Source: an uncultured Bacillota bacterium
GTDB lineage: Bacteria; Bacillota_I; Bacilli_A; RF39; UBA660
DNA length: 47,128 nt
Direction: 5' to 3'
NCBI GenBank assembly: GCA_946617625.1
Contig: CAMOKF010000007.1
Location: forward strand, 1-47,128
The translations under genes and the position numbers were made by a program. This document shows, in pieces, positions 27,052-47,128 of this stretch (the first letter of the stretch is position 1; each line of letters opens with the position of its first letter). The notes beneath the pieces are model-generated. The model was not told the DNA's origin and searched no databases. It saw only the letters and a list, made by a program, of their open reading frames with translations.

Positions 27052-27074
27052 AAAATCGCTTTTTAAGCGATTTT
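27052..27074. terminator. Bidirectional terminator between the converging blocks
   Basis: AAAATCGCTT (27052-27061) pairs with AAGCGATTTT (27065-27074), 10 perfect base pairs with a three-base loop. T-runs follow on the plus strand (27071-27082), and a T-rich stretch follows on the minus strand. It overlaps the stop of the giant late gene at 27073-27075 and backs up the early terminator. Confidence 0.85.
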
Positions 27075-30000
27075 ATTTTTTTAATTTTTTAAAACTATCT
27101 TTACTAGGAGTGTAGGTATACGTTTCATCGTCAAAATATATTGTCCATACATCTCCATTTTTATCAATAGTGTATTTATTGTAGTTATCAATAGTATCTT
27201 GAGTTAAAGCATCTCTAGCTTGATACAAATCTTTCATATCTTCTAATGTAGCTCCGTTAGCTTTTTGTTTATTAATATCTCCACTAATTGAATTTATAGC
27301 GTACACTTTAGTATCAATATACTTTTTCATAACTTTATCTTCAAAAGACATATCTTTATCATTTTTCTTTTGATATTGATATTTATCTCGTAAAGTATAA
27401 ACTGCTGATAAGTTTTTATCATACTTAGTAGAGTCAAATACATAGTTATTTACATCCCATATATCAGTAGTACTATCACCATCCATAAGATTCTTGAATG
27501 CTTTACCATATCTACCAAAAGTATTCATACTTATATAATTTATTATTGAAAAGGCTTTTTCATCTAATGGAGCATCTTCGTTATATATTTCTGCTCCATA
27601 ATAATTTTTATTATTTTTTATAGCTGTTATTTCATTGAATGGACTACTTTCGATTAAGTCTTGAGGTAATACTGATGATTCTAAAGAAGATTTTATAGAT
27701 TCAATATAAGTATTTAAATCTACTTCATCATCTACTCCAGTAGCATATCTTACAAGAGTATCTACAGTTCCAACAATTCTTCCTTTAGGAATTCTTAAAA
27801 ATTTATTATCTCCAATTTTAATCATATAGTAATTATTTTTATAATAATATGGTAGTTTTTCATAATCTTCATCATCTTGATTCAATAAAGCATTTAACAT
27901 AGCTGGAGCACTCATAGCTCCTACTTTCATTAATAAGTTTAATGAACCTTTAACTGGATTTTCTTTAATTTTACCTATATCATATTTTATAGTACTAACA
28001 GTTTTATCTAATGCTTGAGTACTTGCATTTAAGAATAACCAACCTTTACTATTAAGAGCTTGTGTAGCATAACCTCCTCTAGCAAAGTTAAGGTTTACAT
28101 CTTGAGCTTCTAATTTAGCTTCAACAGAAGTTTTACCTGATTCTATAGCTGATATATATTCAGCCATCTTAGGTAAACTTTCAATAGATGTTAATATTCT
28201 TGTAAATTTATTAGTACTAGCTGTTTTTGGTACTATTCCAGTATTTGTTATTTCTTGATATAATACACTATTATTAGCAGCATTGAATGCAGCTCTTATA
28301 TAATTCTTAGCAAATTTTAATGGGTATTTACTATAGAATAATGCGCTATCACCAAAGTCTCTAAGCATATTGTTAGCAGTATATATTGGGTCATAGGATG
28401 TTAACATTTTTTGTTGTACTTTAGTTTTTAATTTAGGAAACCAATTTAGTACTGGAATAGAAAATATATCATCTAATGTTTTTTCAATATTATATTTTTG
28501 GAATACTTGAGCTATTTCATTATTGGTAGTAAATTTATTTACTTTACCTCCATCATAATATATTATATCAGTTCCAGTATTTTTACCTTTAGCATCAATA
28601 GAATATAACTTAGAATTAGCCATAGCTTTGTAAGCATTATTTTTAAGTATACTATTTTCTAAATTTTGTTCTTGTGCTACAAATGCTGTCCATATATCTA
28701 AAATACTTTTACCTTGTTTAGTAGTAGGTTTTAGAGTATCACTTGCTTTAAGTTTAGTATTGTAACTTTTTTCTCCTATATCACCAAAATCACTAGGTTC
28801 GGCTGAATAAATAGGAGCATATATAGTGTATTTACTATCTAAAGCTTCTTTTTGTGAAGTAGAAATAAGACCTGCATCTAATAATTTTTGAGTATTATTA
28901 GTATTCCAAACTCTTAAATCATCTATTACATTTTTAAAGTATGGATGTTTTTTAATCATAGAGTCATAATATTGCTGAGATTTTTTAGCATCTAAATTTA
29001 ATATTGGTTCTTGGTCATTATTAATTCTTTCTACATTTAATATTGCTCTAATAGTTTTTTGAAAGTCATTTAAATCTTGTTTTTTAATTTGTTTTTTAAT
29101 TGTATCTAATGATTTACCTACTACATTACCATTAATATCAGTTTGTTCTACTTTTATATTATTATGTACTTTATTTCTAATAGTCCATAAATCACTTATT
29201 GCATTTTTAACATCTAAATTAGAATTAGCATTAGCAATATTTAGTATAGGAGAATACCTATCAAATACTGCACTATATAATTTAGAAAATGAATTTTTAA
29301 GTTCTTTATTAGCTTTAGTATTATGTACTGACACTTCATTAAATGCTTCTTCTATATCTTGTAAAGTATCTACACTTATTGTTTCTGGATTACCTTTAAT
29401 TTCTATATCTCCAGCTTTAACTGTAACTTCTGATTTTATAGGAGTAGGTTTTTCAATATTTTTAGTTTTAGTATTTATATCAGTATTTTTAATATTAATT
29501 TGATTAGAATTAAATGTAACATATACTGTTGATAATTTATTACCTAATTTTTTATGATAATATGGACCTCTATCTAATACATTATTAAATATTAATCCAT
29601 CATATTTTTTATTGCTAGTTTTATTAAGTTCTAATACTGAATTTACAATATCATCGGTAGTATTACCAATATCAGACTTTATTCTATTAAACATAGCTCC
29701 ATTAGCATCTATTATATATGGATTTTCAATATTAATATATGCTGAATATTGTTTACCGTCTATACTATTTCTATATGAATCAGCTATATCTGCATCATCT
29801 GAAAAGAATGATATTTTTTCTTTACTATTAGTAGTATTAGATAAAATTTTATCAGCATTACTACCTCTGTATACCATTTTAGGTTGACCTATTTCATTTA
29901 CTACTTTACTATTTTTTATAAAGTTTTTATCTTTAGTTGATAACTTATTACCTAAATTGTCAGTAGTTATATTTTTTATATTTAAATCTTTATTAATTTT

Positions 30001-33000
30001 ATTATATTCTTCTTTTGTTATAAATTGTGAATCATCAAATACTATATAGTCAGTTCCTAAAAAATAATTATGTAGGTGGTCTTGTGTTTTTTTAGCATCT
30101 ACTATTTTTTGTCCTTTTTCATTTATTTCATAACCTATTTCATTACTATGTAATGTTGCCCATTCTGAATATGTAGGAGTATGGTATGTATCTAATACAT
30201 TATTGACTATTAATCCATCATAACCATTTTCTTTAGCATATTTAGCAATATTATCTATATTAGTAACATTTTTCTTTAATCCAATATCGCTAGAATCTTG
30301 TTTTAAATCTATTATATTATGTTCTATAGATATAAATGAATTTCCATTAGCGTCTATAATTAGTGGATTATTCATTGCTATATAACCTGATATTACTTGT
30401 GAATTTTCAGTATACTCTAAATTATTATTTAATGAATAAGTTTTAGCTGCTTCTTTATTAGTAGTAAAGTTTAATCTTGGTAAAGCATTATTAGGAGCTA
30501 TTTTTTTACCTGAATAATTAGTAGATAATTTATTACCTATTAATTTACTATCTGTTCCATGATATACTTCTATTAATTCTCCATTTGAATTTCGTAATAA
30601 AGGTTTATTATTTAGTAATTTATCGCTTTTTATATCGCTCCCTGCGGAATCGAGTTTCGTTTCGGTTATAGATTTATTACTTAGATTTAAATCTGATTTA
30701 ACTTTAACAGACGATTTTATACTATCAGATTGTTTACTTCCTACTTTTACTGGTTTAGTTTTAACAGCTCCGTTCATTGTTTCTTTAGCTATTTGCATTT
30801 TAGCAATAAAGTCTTCTTTGCTTAAAGTATTCTTTTCTAAAGCCATTATTTCATCTACTTTTTTAGAAGCTTTATTAAGTTCATTATCAATATTAGCAGT
30901 ATCATTATTATCTGTAGCAGTTATAAGTTTAGTTTTTTGTTTGCCATATAATACTCCATCATAACCTAAAGTTTGAAGTATTTCTTTAGCCATATCTTTA
31001 TTTTTATTTACTAATTCTGCTACATCTTTATTAGTAGAACGAGTAGTTAATTTATCACCATTAAGTCCTAATTTATCAATCATATTATTTACTTTATTCA
31101 CAGCTCTTTCTGATAAATTTAATTTAGCATCTGAATTACCATATATAAATTTACCAGTAGAGTTAACTATAACTGGAGTATGTCCATCAGAACTAATAGA
31201 TTCACTAGCTTCATAAGTATTAAATCCAGTTTTATCAAATACAACTGGTTTACCTCCTTTTTGCTTTATAGGAGTTCTAGTTTCATTATTGTATTTATTT
31301 AAAATGCTTAATGTTTTAGCAAAAGCTTCTCTTCTTTCAGCTAATGAATAATTTTCAGTATCTAAAGTATTTAATAGATTTTCTTGTACATTATTACTTA
31401 TATCTGTAAAATTACCACTAGCTAAAGCTGAATTATCTATTTTAACTTTTGATATAGGTAAATCTTCATTAGCATCTACTTTAGATAAAGTATTATTTAA
31501 ATCACTAAGTTCTGTATGTAAATTTTTAATAGATTTAGAATCAACTGTAGTAGGTGAAGTTTCATTTTTTATTTTAGTATTTAGATTTAAATTATATGTA
31601 GCTTTACCATTTACATAGTTTTTAATATCTTCATTAAACGTTGGAGATTTAACATCTATAACTTCTACATCTGCCGTTGGATTATTAGCTAATATAAAGT
31701 TAGCCATTTCTTGTGAAGGTACAACTGTTGTTACAGTATTATTTTTAATAGCACTTGGACTATAATTTGATTTAGTATTTTCAGGTATAACTTGATTAGC
31801 TACTACTTCAGGAGTTATTTTACCATTGTTTAAATTTTCAATAAATGTACTATATTTTCTATTACCATATAATTCATTATAATAGAATAATTTTTCAGCC
31901 ATAGGATCGTCATTATGAACTAATAAATCATATACTTCTTGAAGAGTAGGAGATTCACTAAGACCTTTAGCTTCATAATAATTAGGATTATTAAGACTTT
32001 CTAATATAGTTTTTTCAGTAGAGTCAAAAGTAATAGCTTCTATATTTGATTTATAAGTATTAGTATTATCAATTGACACAGCCTCCACATCTTTAGTTGT
32101 AGTAGTATTAGTAGGTGACTCGTATTCTATATCTAAGTTATCAATATCATTATCTATATCAGTACTAATTATATCTACAGATTGGTTATTTTCTAAAGAG
32201 GTTGTTAAAGTTTCAGTCAATTTTTCTTTATTTACTTTTTCTACAGAAGTAGAATCTACATTTATAGCTCCTTCAGGAGTTTTATTTATATGAGCATATT
32301 TAGTATTAGTAGTAATATTATTATTTCTATATTTTAATTTAGCTCTACCAGCTTGTGTTGTACCTACTGCTCCACTTACTATTATAGCGTATACAAAATT
32401 TTTAAAAGCTTGAGCTCTAAGTTCTTTATCAAATACTACATCTTTAAAACTTCTATCTTTATCTCCATACATCATGTCTTCACCATAAGCTTGGAAAAAT
32501 TCTTCTAAACCTTCACTAGTCATTGTTATACCTAAAGCTTTTGCTATTTCTCCAAACGTCATTTTAGAAATTTCATAAGTAGTTTTATCATCAAAACTGA
32601 ATTTACCTAATGGACTCTTTTTAATTATTCCATCTAATACAAAGTTCATTGCCACATATAGAGAAGCACCGAATGTTTGTATCGCATTTGGATTTTCTCC
32701 TAAAAGAGCTGATTTTTGTTCTTCTAATCCTAAAGGCTTAGCTATAAAGTTATCGTATAAACCAGGTAAAGCTACGCTTCCAGAAGAAGCAGTATCAATA
32801 TATAATTTAGCTTTACCTACAAGTGGTACTAAGTATTCAGCAAAATCTACTATTCCATTAGTAATCATTAAAGCTTTTTCATCATCTATATCAAGCATAT
32901 TAATAGGTATATCATTTGCTAAAAGAGTATTAACACTACCAAAAGACATATCCATCATTGCATTAGCCGTAGCTCCAACAGTTTGAATTGTAGCATTAAA

Positions 33001-34074
33001 TAAATTAGCAAAATTATCGATTATATTTTCGTGAAAGTATTTATTTTTGTCCCATTTTAGATTTACATCTATATTCTTAAATGGTTCTTCTACGCTGTTC
33101 ATCATATTTTCTATTTTATTATAATCATCATTTAACGAATATAAATTAGTTAATCTATTATATTGTATTAATTGATTTTCAAATTCTAACTTAGATTTTT
33201 CAGTTTGTAATTTATTTAATGTAGCATCATTTACTCCATTAGATATAGAACTATTAATTGCTTCTAATTTTTTTACATTAGTATCAAATCTTTTTTCTAA
33301 AGTAGCTATATCTTTACTATCTCCAAATAAAGAGCGTAACATTCCATCACTATAATCTGCTCCAAAATATTTTTCATTTATTTTTTGCATAGCATTATTT
33401 GCTGCTTTTACATTTCCTTCTTTTATACTAGTATTAAATTTTTCAATATATTTTTTATAATAACTATCTTTATTCTCATAAGGATTTATAGTTTGCTTAT
33501 TAGTAGCTTTATTAGTAGCTTTATTAGTTATAGCTTCAAATTGAGAACTAGCTTCAGTAGTTTTTTTATTTGTTGGACTAATGTTTTTAAATTTATTTTG
33601 TACATCTTGTTTAGTTTGCCATTGTTTAGCTTTTTTCTTATTCTCGGCAGCTTCATCAGTAATCAAAAAATTATTTAGTGATAAATCATTTACTCCTAAA
33701 TTAGTATAAAAATCAGAAGTAGAAGTATCTTTAGAATTATTATAATTATATTTTTGTCCACCGGAAGTAGCTAAATCCCAATTATAAATCAAACTATTAG
33801 TTCTTTCTTTAATTAATGAACTTTTGTTGTTATTATAATATTCTTCTTGTTCTTTTTTCTTTTTTTCTTCTGCTGCTTTTTGTTGTTTTTGTTGCTCCAT
33901 TTCTAATTGTTTTTTAGCCAAATTATTTGAATAATAATCTATTTGAGCCAAAAAATCATTAGAAGAATTTTGAGATTTAGAAGCAGAAGAGTTTGTACTT
34001 TTAACTTTTTTAGAACCTATACTATTTACTACTTCATTGAATATATCATCATTTCTACTATATTTAAAAGCCAT
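27073..34074 (-). CDS. Giant polyvalent ejection protein with ADP-ribosyltransferase-like domains
   Basis: 2333 residues. Order: Gln/Lys/Glu coiled coil (about 35-110); a helical part with hydrophobic stretches (about 340-600); a long Asn/Thr/Ser-rich linker; ART-PolyVal-like unit A (about 1158-1351, with VYHGT, FTTNKEAAKTYS, YDGLI, YIVFDDSQF); unit B (about 1390-1525, with VYRGS, FFSDDADIADSY, YDGLIF, VTFNSNQI); and a C-terminal region (about 1810-2115, with YDPIYTANNMLRDFGDS) resembling LPD38 of large polyvalent proteins. Such proteins are packaged and injected with the DNA. ADP-ribosylation of a host target is inferred. The hexapeptide GNKLST recurs three times round the ART units. AGGAGG start site. 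Confidence 0.85.
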   Translation of the reverse strand: MAFKYSRNDDIFNEVVNSIGSKKVKSTNSSASKSQNSSNDFLAQIDYYSNNLAKKQLEMEQQKQQKAAEEKKKKEQEEYYNNNKSSLIKERTNSLIYNWDLATSGGQKYNYNNSKDTSTSDFYTNLGVNDLSLNNFLITDEAAENKKKAKQWQTKQDVQNKFKNISPTNKKTTEASSQFEAITNKATNKATNKQTINPYENKDSYYKKYIEKFNTSIKEGNVKAANNAMQKINEKYFGADYSDGMLRSLFGDSKDIATLEKRFDTNVKKLEAINSSISNGVNDATLNKLQTEKSKLEFENQLIQYNRLTNLYSLNDDYNKIENMMNSVEEPFKNIDVNLKWDKNKYFHENIIDNFANLFNATIQTVGATANAMMDMSFGSVNTLLANDIPINMLDIDDEKALMITNGIVDFAEYLVPLVGKAKLYIDTASSGSVALPGLYDNFIAKPLGLEEQKSALLGENPNAIQTFGASLYVAMNFVLDGIIKKSPLGKFSFDDKTTYEISKMTFGEIAKALGITMTSEGLEEFFQAYGEDMMYGDKDRSFKDVVFDKELRAQAFKNFVYAIIVSGAVGTTQAGRAKLKYRNNNITTNTKYAHINKTPEGAINVDSTSVEKVNKEKLTETLTTSLENNQSVDIISTDIDNDIDNLDIEYESPTNTTTTKDVEAVSIDNTNTYKSNIEAITFDSTEKTILESLNNPNYYEAKGLSESPTLQEVYDLLVHNDDPMAEKLFYYNELYGNRKYSTFIENLNNGKITPEVVANQVIPENTKSNYSPSAIKNNTVTTVVPSQEMANFILANNPTADVEVIDVKSPTFNEDIKNYVNGKATYNLNLNTKIKNETSPTTVDSKSIKNLHTELSDLNNTLSKVDANEDLPISKVKIDNSALASGNFTDISNNVQENLLNTLDTENYSLAERREAFAKTLSILNKYNNETRTPIKQKGGKPVVFDKTGFNTYEASESISSDGHTPVIVNSTGKFIYGNSDAKLNLSERAVNKVNNMIDKLGLNGDKLTTRSTNKDVAELVNKNKDMAKEILQTLGYDGVLYGKQKTKLITATDNNDTANIDNELNKASKKVDEIMALEKNTLSKEDFIAKMQIAKETMNGAVKTKPVKVGSKQSDSIKSSVKVKSDLNLSNKSITETKLDSAGSDIKSDKLLNNKPLLRNSNGELIEVYHGTDSKLIGNKLSTNYSGKKIAPNNALPRLNFTTNKEAAKTYSLNNNLEYTENSQVISGYIAMNNPLIIDANGNSFISIEHNIIDLKQDSSDIGLKKNVTNIDNIAKYAKENGYDGLIVNNVLDTYHTPTYSEWATLHSNEIGYEINEKGQKIVDAKKTQDHLHNYFLGTDYIVFDDSQFITKEEYNKINKDLNIKNITTDNLGNKLSTKDKNFIKNSKVVNEIGQPKMVYRGSNADKILSNTTNSKEKISFFSDDADIADSYRNSIDGKQYSAYINIENPYIIDANGAMFNRIKSDIGNTTDDIVNSVLELNKTSNKKYDGLIFNNVLDRGPYYHKKLGNKLSTVYVTFNSNQINIKNTDINTKTKNIEKPTPIKSEVTVKAGDIEIKGNPETISVDTLQDIEEAFNEVSVHNTKANKELKNSFSKLYSAVFDRYSPILNIANANSNLDVKNAISDLWTIRNKVHNNIKVEQTDINGNVVGKSLDTIKKQIKKQDLNDFQKTIRAILNVERINNDQEPILNLDAKKSQQYYDSMIKKHPYFKNVIDDLRVWNTNNTQKLLDAGLISTSQKEALDSKYTIYAPIYSAEPSDFGDIGEKSYNTKLKASDTLKPTTKQGKSILDIWTAFVAQEQNLENSILKNNAYKAMANSKLYSIDAKGKNTGTDIIYYDGGKVNKFTTNNEIAQVFQKYNIEKTLDDIFSIPVLNWFPKLKTKVQQKMLTSYDPIYTANNMLRDFGDSALFYSKYPLKFAKNYIRAAFNAANNSVLYQEITNTGIVPKTASTNKFTRILTSIESLPKMAEYISAIESGKTSVEAKLEAQDVNLNFARGGYATQALNSKGWLFLNASTQALDKTVSTIKYDIGKIKENPVKGSLNLLMKVGAMSAPAMLNALLNQDDEDYEKLPYYYKNNYYMIKIGDNKFLRIPKGRIVGTVDTLVRYATGVDDEVDLNTYIESIKSSLESSVLPQDLIESSPFNEITAIKNNKNYYGAEIYNEDAPLDEKAFSIINYISMNTFGRYGKAFKNLMDGDSTTDIWDVNNYVFDSTKYDKNLSAVYTLRDKYQYQKKNDKDMSFEDKVMKKYIDTKVYAINSISGDINKQKANGATLEDMKDLYQARDALTQDTIDNYNKYTIDKNGDVWTIYFDDETYTYTPSKDSFKKLKK

Positions 34075-34087
34075 ATTTGCCTCCTAA

Positions 34088-35095
34088 CTAAATTCCATAT
34101 TGCTTTTTAACAGCTGCTTTATCAGCTTTAGAAAATTTATATTTAGAATTATTTAATACTGAATTAATTTGTGATTTAGTTACTCCACCATTATTAACTT
34201 CAGCCTGTATTAAAGCTAAGTAAGCATTATAAGCATCATTATTACTAAATGACCCTGGATTCATACAATAAGTAGTTTTATATACTGTTTCAGTTTTACC
34301 AGTTTTAGTATTTTTCTTTTTAGTTTTAGTAGAACCTCTACTTCCACCTCCACCTCCGCCAGTTTTCTTATGAGCGGTGTAATAAGCTAATTTATATTGC
34401 TTAGTAGCTAAATCATTTTCAAATTTTTGTTGTTTTAATTGGTCTTGGTATTGTTTTTCTTTAAACTTATTTTCCCATTCTTGTTGAGCAAGTTTATCAG
34501 CTCTGTCTTGTTGAGCTCTTTCATTTTCTAGTTCTTGTTGCTTTAATCTATCTTGATATTGTAAATCATTATAGTAATTATTATAAGTAGTATTATATAC
34601 ATCTCTACCTTGTTCACCAATATATTTTTGAGTTTCAAGTTTATCTTTAGCATAAGCAGCATCTAAGTCTGCTAAATCTTCATTTAAATCTCCTAGAGCA
34701 TTGATTTTTTGATTATCAATATCTCTCATACTTTCATTATAGTCTAATACTAAATCTCCATATTGTTGTCCGTAAGCAACATTATTTAATAATCTTTGTG
34801 TTACTCCAAAACCTTGAGTATTTACTCCTAAAGCAACTAAATCTGAATCAATTTGTTGTAAGTTTTGTTGTTTATTTATATAAGCAGCTCTAGCATTTCT
34901 TTCGAATCTTTGTTGTATACCAGGAATTTGTTGTTCTATTTGAGTAATTAAATTTTGGTATCTAGTTTGAGCGGCTTGTTGGTCTAATGCTTTGCTTTCA
35001 TCTAAACCAGTCAATAAATAAGATAATGAATTTTCATATTCTTGTTGAGCATTTGTAGCATAGTCATTAGATTTAGTTATATATTCTGATTCCAT
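34088..35095 (-). CDS. Internal virion protein (coiled coil)
   Basis: 335 residues rich in Gln, Asn, Glu and Tyr. Residues 1-235 form long helices with an internal near-repeat (QYQDRLKQQELENERAQQ and QYQDQLKQQKFENDLA). A Gly6 hinge (about 246-251) and a basic linker follow, then a small C-terminal domain with SQINSVLNNSKYKFSKADK. This composition and the place just before the giant ejection protein fit an internal or ejection protein, comparable in role to T7 gp14/gp15. It has a late-promoter-like motif and terminator directly upstream. Confidence 0.8.
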   Translation of the reverse strand: MESEYITKSNDYATNAQQEYENSLSYLLTGLDESKALDQQAAQTRYQNLITQIEQQIPGIQQRFERNARAAYINKQQNLQQIDSDLVALGVNTQGFGVTQRLLNNVAYGQQYGDLVLDYNESMRDIDNQKINALGDLNEDLADLDAAYAKDKLETQKYIGEQGRDVYNTTYNNYYNDLQYQDRLKQQELENERAQQDRADKLAQQEWENKFKEKQYQDQLKQQKFENDLATKQYKLAYYTAHKKTGGGGGGSRGSTKTKKKNTKTGKTETVYKTTYCMNPGSFSNNDAYNAYLALIQAEVNNGGVTKSQINSVLNNSKYKFSKADKAAVKKQYGI

Positions 35096-36769: not shown

Positions 36770-37531
36770 TTAAATAAAATTTGAACCACCACATCCGCAA
36801 CTATTGTTGCAAGTAAAGATAGGTGTTCTTCCATATACTGGCGTAGATGGTACTGGGCATGAATTTAATCTATTATATAAAGCATCTACTTCATTAGCAA
36901 AGCCTTGAGTGATTAAATTATTTTGAGCACTTTGACTAGCTGCAAGATTAGCCATATTTAATTGAGTTCTTAATTGAGCGATAGTATCATTTTTAGCTTC
37001 AATTTCTTGAGCACATAATTTATCTAATATAGCTTGTGTATTAGCAGTATTAGCAGTAATTATATCTCTAATTCCATTACTTAAAGCTTCTCTATCGGCA
37101 CAGTTTTCAGTAGCTACAGTATATTTTAAATCAGCTATAGATGCTCTATTATCACAGCAGCATTGTGCTAATTGACTTTGTAAGCTCATTAATCCAGTTC
37201 TATTTTCAAAACCTGAATTATTAATAGCTGTTACTACATCAAATCTATTGTCACAAGCTTGTCTAGATAAATCTGATAAACTATTATTTATTCCAGTAAT
37301 ACCATTAAGAAGAGCACTTTGGTCAAAACCACGTTGAACATCATTATTAATATAATAAGGCATTCCACTATTTCCACCATCGTTTCCGTTAAAACCATTA
37401 CCTCTCCATCCCATAGCAAAGATTAAGAAAATAATAATCCACCAAGCTCCACCATCTCCGAATCCATAACCACTTCCGTTACGATTTCCAGATAATACAG
37501 CTACGTCAGCAGGACTTAGACTTCCTTCCAT
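36770..37531 (-). CDS. Glycine-rich membrane-anchored, cysteine-rich protein (253 residues)
   Basis: ATG 37531 has AGAAAGGAG upstream; the longer frame from 37585 lacks a site. Residues 1-20 (MEGSLSPADVAVLSGNRNGS) precede a Gly-rich part and a short hydrophobic segment (WWIIIFLIFAMGW), then a Gly/Asn stretch, helical middle, a CCC motif (near residue 125) and a cysteine-rich end (TCNNSCGCGGSNFI). I know this type as a widespread but uncharacterised protein of gut Firmicutes phages, encoded near head/tail genes. Membrane anchoring and disulfide or metal binding are inferences. Confidence 0.8.
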   Translation of the reverse strand: MEGSLSPADVAVLSGNRNGSGYGFGDGGAWWIIIFLIFAMGWRGNGFNGNDGGNSGMPYYINNDVQRGFDQSALLNGITGINNSLSDLSRQACDNRFDVVTAINNSGFENRTGLMSLQSQLAQCCCDNRASIADLKYTVATENCADREALSNGIRDIITANTANTQAILDKLCAQEIEAKNDTIAQLRTQLNMANLAASQSAQNNLITQGFANEVDALYNRLNSCPVPSTPVYGRTPIFTCNNSCGCGGSNFI

Positions 37532-37590
37532 TCTATTTCTCCTTTCTATAAATGTATTGGACTCGCGAATTATATATAAAACCAATACTG

Positions 37591-46970: not shown

Positions 46971-47128
46971 TACAATTCCTCCTTAACTTTATCTTTAGAT
47001 TTTTCTTCTTCTTGTAAATCTTCAGAATCAGTATCTTCTTCATCTTCAATTACTTCAGTTTCTGTATCTTCTTCAGAATCAGTATCTTCTTCATCTTCAA
47101 TTACTTCAGTTTCTGTATCTTCTTCAGA
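46970..47128 (-). CDS. Acidic repeat protein, C-terminal part (continues at 238-1)
   Basis: Reads in frame with the N-terminal part at 1-238 through the circle junction (47074 equals position 1). It contains two 17-residue repeats rich in Glu, Asp and Thr, followed by SEDLQEEEKSKDKVKEEL and TAA 46970-46972, which overlaps the next ATG. Bases 47074-47128 duplicate 1-55. Repeat number in the real genome is uncertain because the repeat is longer than the overlap used to close the circle. Confidence 0.85.
   Translation of the reverse strand, partial: SEEDTETEVIEDEEDTDSEEDTETEVIEDEEDTDSEDLQEEEKSKDKVKEEL
47023..47124. repeat. 51-base tandem repeat (two copies) in the acidic gene
   Basis: Copies at 47023-47073 and 47074-47124 are identical; a third, divergent partial copy follows on the circle from position 52. 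The period of 51 bases equals 17 codons, so gain or loss of copies keeps the frame. The circle junction falls inside this repeat. Confidence 0.9.
47074..47128. repeat. Terminal direct repeat, right copy
   Basis: Identical to 1-55; removing one copy gives a 47,073-base circle with an intact gene across the junction. Confidence 0.9.

What the first reader, a model, noticed from the sequence alone, without database searches (positions are those of the whole stretch)
29490..30605. Giant ejected protein with at least two ADP-ribosyltransferase-like units in tandem
Unit A (about 30017-30605) has VYHGT, a Tyr-containing FTTNKEAAKTYS and YIVFDDSQF. Unit B (about 29490-29905) has VYRGS, SFFSDDADIADSY and VTFNSNQI. 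Both share PLIIDANG/PYIIDANG and YDGLI, which fits ART-PolyVal domains of large polyvalent proteins. Unit B has Arg in place of the His of unit A, so the two may modify different targets or one may be inactive. An earlier stretch (about residues 940-1050, with GYDGVLY) may be a third, decayed unit.
Basis: partly seen in the sequence, partly recalled or inferred. Interest (0 to 1): 0.72.

Follow-up and report, generated by a model that had tools for sequence, protein, structure and literature searches.

The report
Phage giant protein with twin ADP-ribosyltransferases
A gut-type phage carries a 2,333-residue late protein that holds two PARP-like ADP-ribosyltransferase domains in a row, one with a complete active site and one that has lost the catalytic histidine; this is a new member of a family of phage weapons already described, and not a new kind of system.

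Summary
Confirmed. The minus-strand ORF 27073-34074 (2333 aa) holds two domains that each pass the Pfam cut-off for ART-PolyVal (PF18760): unit A 40.8 bits, unit B 56.7 bits, cut-off 31.2. A tandem AlphaFold model, of only moderate confidence (pLDDT 65), matches PARP catalytic domains with both halves and phage 'PolyVal ADP-ribosyltransferases'. Unit A has a complete H-Y-D triad (H1172, Y1213, D1342). Unit B has R1403-Y1434-V1517. Arg at the first position is rare: 141 of 146 distinct family domains have His and 2 have Arg; matched DNA patterns gave 56 His contigs and no AGR-coded Arg contigs. The most likely reading is one active ART plus one pseudo-ART. The two are not a recent duplication. 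They fill a slot of about 450 aa that holds 7 aa in a syntenic relative, inside a polyvalent protein ending in LPD38. Proteins sharing that C-terminus carry other cargo. The proposed third unit is not supported. Tandem ARTs in polyvalent proteins are already published (PMC5512222). Ejection into the host is inferred, not shown.

The parts
27073..34074 (-). Giant polyvalent protein, 2333 aa, last gene of the late block
   Evidence: Single ORF; the following genes run convergently on the + strand
30010..30642 (-). Unit A, ART-PolyVal domain, residues 1145-1355
   Evidence: PF18760 40.8 bits, cut-off 31.2; AF2 half matches PARP1/PARP2 at Z about 7
29455..29949 (-). Unit B, ART-PolyVal domain, residues 1376-1540
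   Evidence: PF18760 56.7 bits; AF2 half matches tankyrase/PARP1 at Z about 7.2; phrog_21376 E 2.5e-13
30559..30561 (-). H1172 (CAT), first triad residue of unit A
   Evidence: Sequence and alignment A4
30436..30438 (-). Y1213, second triad residue of unit A
30049..30051 (-). D1342, third triad residue of unit A (T-D-Y-I-V-F)
   Evidence: codon, pairwise alignment with unit B. MAFFT A4 misplaces this strand of unit A because of its insert, so the assignment rests on the motif and the pairwise alignment
29866..29868 (-). R1403 (AGA) at the His position of unit B
29773..29775 (-). Y1434, second triad residue of unit B
29524..29526 (-). V1517 at the third triad position of unit B
   Evidence: the four closest relatives have D here
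29494..30852 (-). Slot holding the ART pair (residues about 1075-1527), about 453 aa here against 7 aa in L003
   Evidence: Flanking blocks 772-1074 and 1528-1975 align to L003 814-1123 and 1131-1594
30880..31302 (-). Region C, the proposed third unit: a conserved domain of unknown fold
   Evidence: 39-41% identical to L002/L003; no ART hit; model pLDDT 51
27574..27873 (-). LPD38, large polyvalent protein associated domain 38, residues 2068-2167
   Evidence: PF18857 39.8 bits, cut-off 27

Best explanation
The gene encodes a polyvalent effector of a short-tailed-type phage found in the draft assembly of a small-genome bacterium. It is probably packaged in the virion and enters the host with the DNA (inferred). 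Inside the host, unit A, a PARP-like H-Y-D ART, transfers ADP-ribose from NAD+ to a host macromolecule, most likely a protein, early in infection (inferred from the family). Unit B keeps the fold but has R1403 and V1517 where its closest relatives have His and Asp. It is most likely a pseudo-ART that no longer catalyses normal transfer and serves as a substrate-binding, NAD-binding or regulatory partner of unit A, or is on its way to loss. The pair sits in an exchangeable cargo slot between conserved flanks in front of an LPD38 C-terminus.
For: Both units pass the PF18760 cut-off. An HMM built without the focal rows still recovers both. PDB fold comparison of the tandem model lists PARPs for both halves, and BFVD lists annotated PolyVal ADP-ribosyltransferases at probability 1.0. 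Triad: A is H-Y-D, B is R-Y-V. His is near-invariant in the family: 141 H, 2 R, 2 N, 1 T; 56 His and 0 AGR-Arg matches with the same flanking pattern. The slot is absent in syntenic relatives L002/L003. Other proteins sharing the C-terminus carry MuF_C, PBECR3 nuclease, or helicase plus RadC cargo. The gene lies with head, portal, terminase and tail genes.
Against: No experiment. Ejection is not shown, and no virion data exist. The model is only moderately confident (pLDDT 65, pTM 0.46), and Z about 7 lies in the range where a common arrangement can occur by chance. The third triad position varies widely in the family (D, E, S, T, V, I, Q, F, Y), so V1517 alone does not argue for inactivity. 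Arg sits at the equivalent position in the R-S-E class of ARTs, so an altered activity of unit B is not excluded.
Confidence: 0.66

Rival explanations
1. Both units are active ARTs with different targets. Unit B uses Arg in place of His, as R-S-E class ARTs do, and so gains a different substrate range.
For: Unit B has no stop or frameshift, keeps the Tyr, the NP strand, the DG motif and the final Q, and scores higher against PF18760 than unit A. A second Arg unit exists in L136, also in a protein with other ART copies. The third position is variable in the family.
Against: R-S-E enzymes also need the Ser and Glu motifs; unit B has Tyr and Val there. Arg is seen in 2 of 146 domains.
Confidence: 0.17
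2. Neither unit acts on the host. The protein is mainly structural, a DNA-ejection or channel component, and the ART domains are passengers under weak selection.
For: Two syntenic relatives (L002, L003) do without the ART pair. In cyanophage A4 a 1717-aa protein is part of the solved pre-ejectosome (PDB 9k3a).
Against: Unit A keeps a full triad and the frame is open over about 450 aa. ARTs recur in giant phage proteins from many lineages, which suggests positive value.
Confidence: 0.1
3. The protein carries three ART units, the third (about residues 925-1065) being decayed.
For: hhalign of region C against the ART profile gives probability 51% over 33 columns around the GYDG motif.
Against: No Pfam ART hit for region C or its relatives. 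AF2 model pLDDT 51 shows helices and no ART fold. Region C is conserved in phages in which no ART was found.
Confidence: 0.07

Closest known systems
ART-PolyVal (PF18760) domains of phage and plasmid polyvalent proteins, Tox-ART-HYD2 clade (Iyer et al. 2017, PMC5512222)
   Same: Sequence family above cut-off for both units; H-Y-D triad in unit A; giant multidomain protein with an LPD; several ART copies in one protein are already described there, up to 12
   Different: Unit B lacks the His and the Asp; no relative of the whole protein or of the ART pair was found in the phage records searched
Human PARPs and tankyrases (ARTD family)
   Same: Fold match for both halves and the H-Y plus final-strand layout. 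Unit B resembles inactive PARP13, which (general knowledge) lacks the His and the Glu
   Different: Low identity (about 7-18%), smaller domain, phage context
T4 Alt
   Same: A phage ART packaged in the head and injected (as told in PMC5512222)
   Different: Alt belongs to the R-S-E (Alt/VIP2) clade; unit A is H-Y-D; target unknown here
Anabaena phage A-4L gp27 (PDB 9k3a chain B, pre-ejectosome)
   Same: Giant protein of a podophage pre-ejectosome; Foldseek match to the A+B model, E 0.023, probability 0.93
   Different: No sequence similarity to the ART profile, so the match is only a lead

Membership tests
ART-PolyVal (PF18760), unit A | Profile match above the curated cut-off | tested here: met
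   40.8 bits against 31.2
ART-PolyVal (PF18760), unit A | Active-site H (strand 1), Y (strand 2), D (strand 5) | tested here: met
   H1172, Y1213, D1342; the strand-5 position is assigned by motif and pairwise alignment
ART-PolyVal (PF18760), unit B | Profile match above the curated cut-off | tested here: met
   56.7 bits
ART-PolyVal (PF18760), unit B | Active-site H and D | tested here: not met
   R1403 and V1517 in their places; Y1434 kept. It descends from the family but is not filed as an active H-Y-D enzyme
ART fold (PARP-like) | ART fold in predicted structure | tested here: met
   Tandem model: both halves match PARP catalytic domains, Z about 7, and viral PolyVal ARTs, E to 4.9e-10; model pLDDT only 65
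Polyvalent protein (Iyer et al. 2017) | Large multidomain phage protein combining enzymatic domains with LPDs | tested here: met
   ART, ART, LPD38 in 2333 aa
Polyvalent protein (Iyer et al. 2017) | Delivered into the host with the DNA | not testable with these tools
   Inferred from late-gene position and family only
R-S-E class ART (Alt, ModA type) | Arg, Ser motif, Glu | tested here: not met
   Unit B has the Arg, but Tyr and Val at the other two positions
ADP-ribosyltransferase | Catalytic activity on NAD+ | not testable with these tools
   Needs an enzyme assay
ART-PolyVal, region C (residues 925-1065) | Profile match or ART fold | tested here: inconclusive
   No Pfam hit; hhalign 51% over 33 columns; low-confidence model

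The most novel reading that the evidence does not exclude
Unit B is a working pseudo-ART, an injected partner that binds NAD+, ADP-ribose or the substrate and steers or regulates the active unit A; Arg-for-His pseudo-ARTs in multi-ART phage proteins (also L136) would then be a recurrent design.
Probability: 0.3. Interest if true: 0.5.

Novelty: new member of a known kind. Interest (0 to 1): 0.32.

Why it matters
It adds a clear case of an active-looking and an apparently inactive ART side by side in one phage protein, in an exchangeable cargo slot, from a phage whose giant protein has no relative in the phage records searched. Comparing unit A with unit B would test whether polyvalent phage proteins use pseudo-ARTs. 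ART copies are common in giant proteins of this type (91 ORFs of 800 aa or more in the gathered sample, 37 of them with two or more matched stretches), yet no target of any ART-PolyVal domain is named in the passages read here.

Tried and rejected
A full-length Pfam scan missed both ARTs; they appear only when the segments are searched apart. PHROGs gave no function. tblastn of the whole protein or of A+B in phage records, and of A+B in plasmid records, found nothing. Direct single-protein scans of viral contigs with A or B found no relative, and the first alignment was too divergent to scan with; degenerate VY[HQR]G patterns worked. A tree of ART domains was too noisy to place A and B (42 of 79 inner branches drawn open; the careful search did not finish), so their relation rests on BLAST ranking. 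Sequence hits of the ART profile to designed Scone proteins were rejected as spurious. A third ART unit was rejected for lack of support. A recent tandem duplication was rejected, because both units score higher against domains from other phages than against each other.

Full report
WHAT IS THERE. The finding lies in one minus-strand ORF, 27073-34074, of 2333 residues. The window is a whole contig of a 1.19 Mb draft assembly; the related genomes drawn by the search are mostly of similar small size. The genes around it are those of a tailed phage: terminase, portal, major head protein and tail protein on the minus strand, DNA polymerase on the plus strand. The giant gene is the last of the minus-strand late block and faces the plus-strand replication genes.

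TWO ART DOMAINS. Searched as separate segments, both units exceed the Pfam cut-off for ART-PolyVal: 40.8 bits for unit A (residues 1145-1355) and 56.7 bits for unit B (residues 1376-1540), cut-off 31.2. The whole-protein scan did not report them. A profile made from 23 related domains without the focal rows finds both again. A tandem AlphaFold model built on 12 sequences has a mean pLDDT of 65 and pTM 0.46, so it is only moderately reliable. Its PDB matches are nearly all PARP catalytic domains: unit B against tankyrase (Z 7.2), unit A against PARP1 and PARP2 (Z 6.8 to 7.0). Against predicted viral proteins it matches annotated PolyVal ADP-ribosyltransferases at probability 1.0, with E-values in the list down to 4.9e-10.

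ACTIVE SITES. Unit A has H1172, Y1213 and D1342, the H-Y-D set described for these domains (Iyer et al. 2017, PMC5512222). D1342 is assigned from the T-D-Y-I-V-F motif and a pairwise alignment; the multiple alignment misplaces that strand of unit A because of an insert. Unit B has R1403, Y1434 and V1517. Among 146 distinct domains with a residue at the first position, 141 have His, 2 Arg, 2 Asn and 1 Thr. The sample was gathered partly with patterns that demand His, so the share of His is somewhat inflated. The matched control is cleaner: with identical flanking patterns, viral contigs gave 56 stretches with His and none with AGR-coded Arg; an earlier pattern that allowed CGN-coded Arg gave none among its ART hits. 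The second Arg unit, in L136, also lies in a protein with two further ART stretches. The third position is variable across the family, but the four closest relatives of unit B in the alignment keep Asp. I read unit A as probably active and unit B as probably a pseudo-ART. This is inference from sequence.

ORIGIN. Unit B is closest to domains from Clostridia assemblies (L072, L081), and unit A also scores higher against outside domains than against unit B, so this is not a recent duplication. In two phages with a syntenic giant gene (L002, L003) the flanks align but the ART pair is missing, about 453 residues here against 7 in L003, and no ART-PolyVal match was found in either record (these records may be fragments, and the control genomes did not ring). 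Whether this is gain or loss cannot be told. Proteins from the same bacterial family that share the C-terminal part hold LPD38 too but carry other cargo: MuF_C, a PBECR3 nuclease, or helicase plus RadC.

THE PROPOSED THIRD UNIT. Region 925-1065 is conserved in L002 and L003 at about 40% identity. It gives no Pfam ART hit, a 33-column hhalign match of 51% probability near the GYDG motif, and a low-confidence helical model (pLDDT 51). It is better called a conserved domain of unknown fold.

KNOWN OR NEW. ARTs in one or many copies in polyvalent proteins are published, up to 12 in one protein (PMC5512222). In the loci gathered here, 37 of 91 ART-bearing ORFs of 800 aa or more have two or more ART stretches. 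This is a new member of a known kind with an uncommon active-site change in one unit. That the protein is ejected is inferred from the family and the gene position. A lead in the same direction is the Foldseek match to a pre-ejectosome protein of cyanophage A4 (PDB 9k3a), which has no sequence match to the ART profile.

Noticed in passing
30521-30547, 29936-29962, 29528-29554: The coding repeat GNKLST occurs three times (27 nt, about 85% alike), only once at the canonical domain start; a 34-nt stretch coding YDGLI[FV]NNVLD is 94% identical between the units (30189-30222 and 29571-29604). Local copying between units is possible.
   Followed up: partly
1-55 and 47074-47128: The contig ends share an exact 55-bp low-complexity repeat, so the contig may be a complete phage genome joined end to end, or this may only be a repeat-rich gene.
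   Followed up: partly
L107:20116-25269 (Anabaena phage A-4L gp27): Foldseek ranks this solved pre-ejectosome protein (9k3a_B) third for the tandem ART model, between tankyrases; it may hold an unannotated ART-like domain.
   Followed up: partly
L013:7632-8153 and L018: ART-PolyVal units with Asn in place of the catalytic His (YYNGG, YYNGS), in a 2249-aa giant protein and in a fragment with a TAA stop.
   Followed up: no
36770-37585: Late-block protein of unknown function matching phrog_16490 (E 1.1e-39) with no Pfam hit.
   Followed up: no
34088-35095: 335-aa protein directly upstream of the giant gene, no PHROG or Pfam hit, with a similar 339-aa protein in the same place in L003; a candidate partner in the virion.
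   Followed up: no
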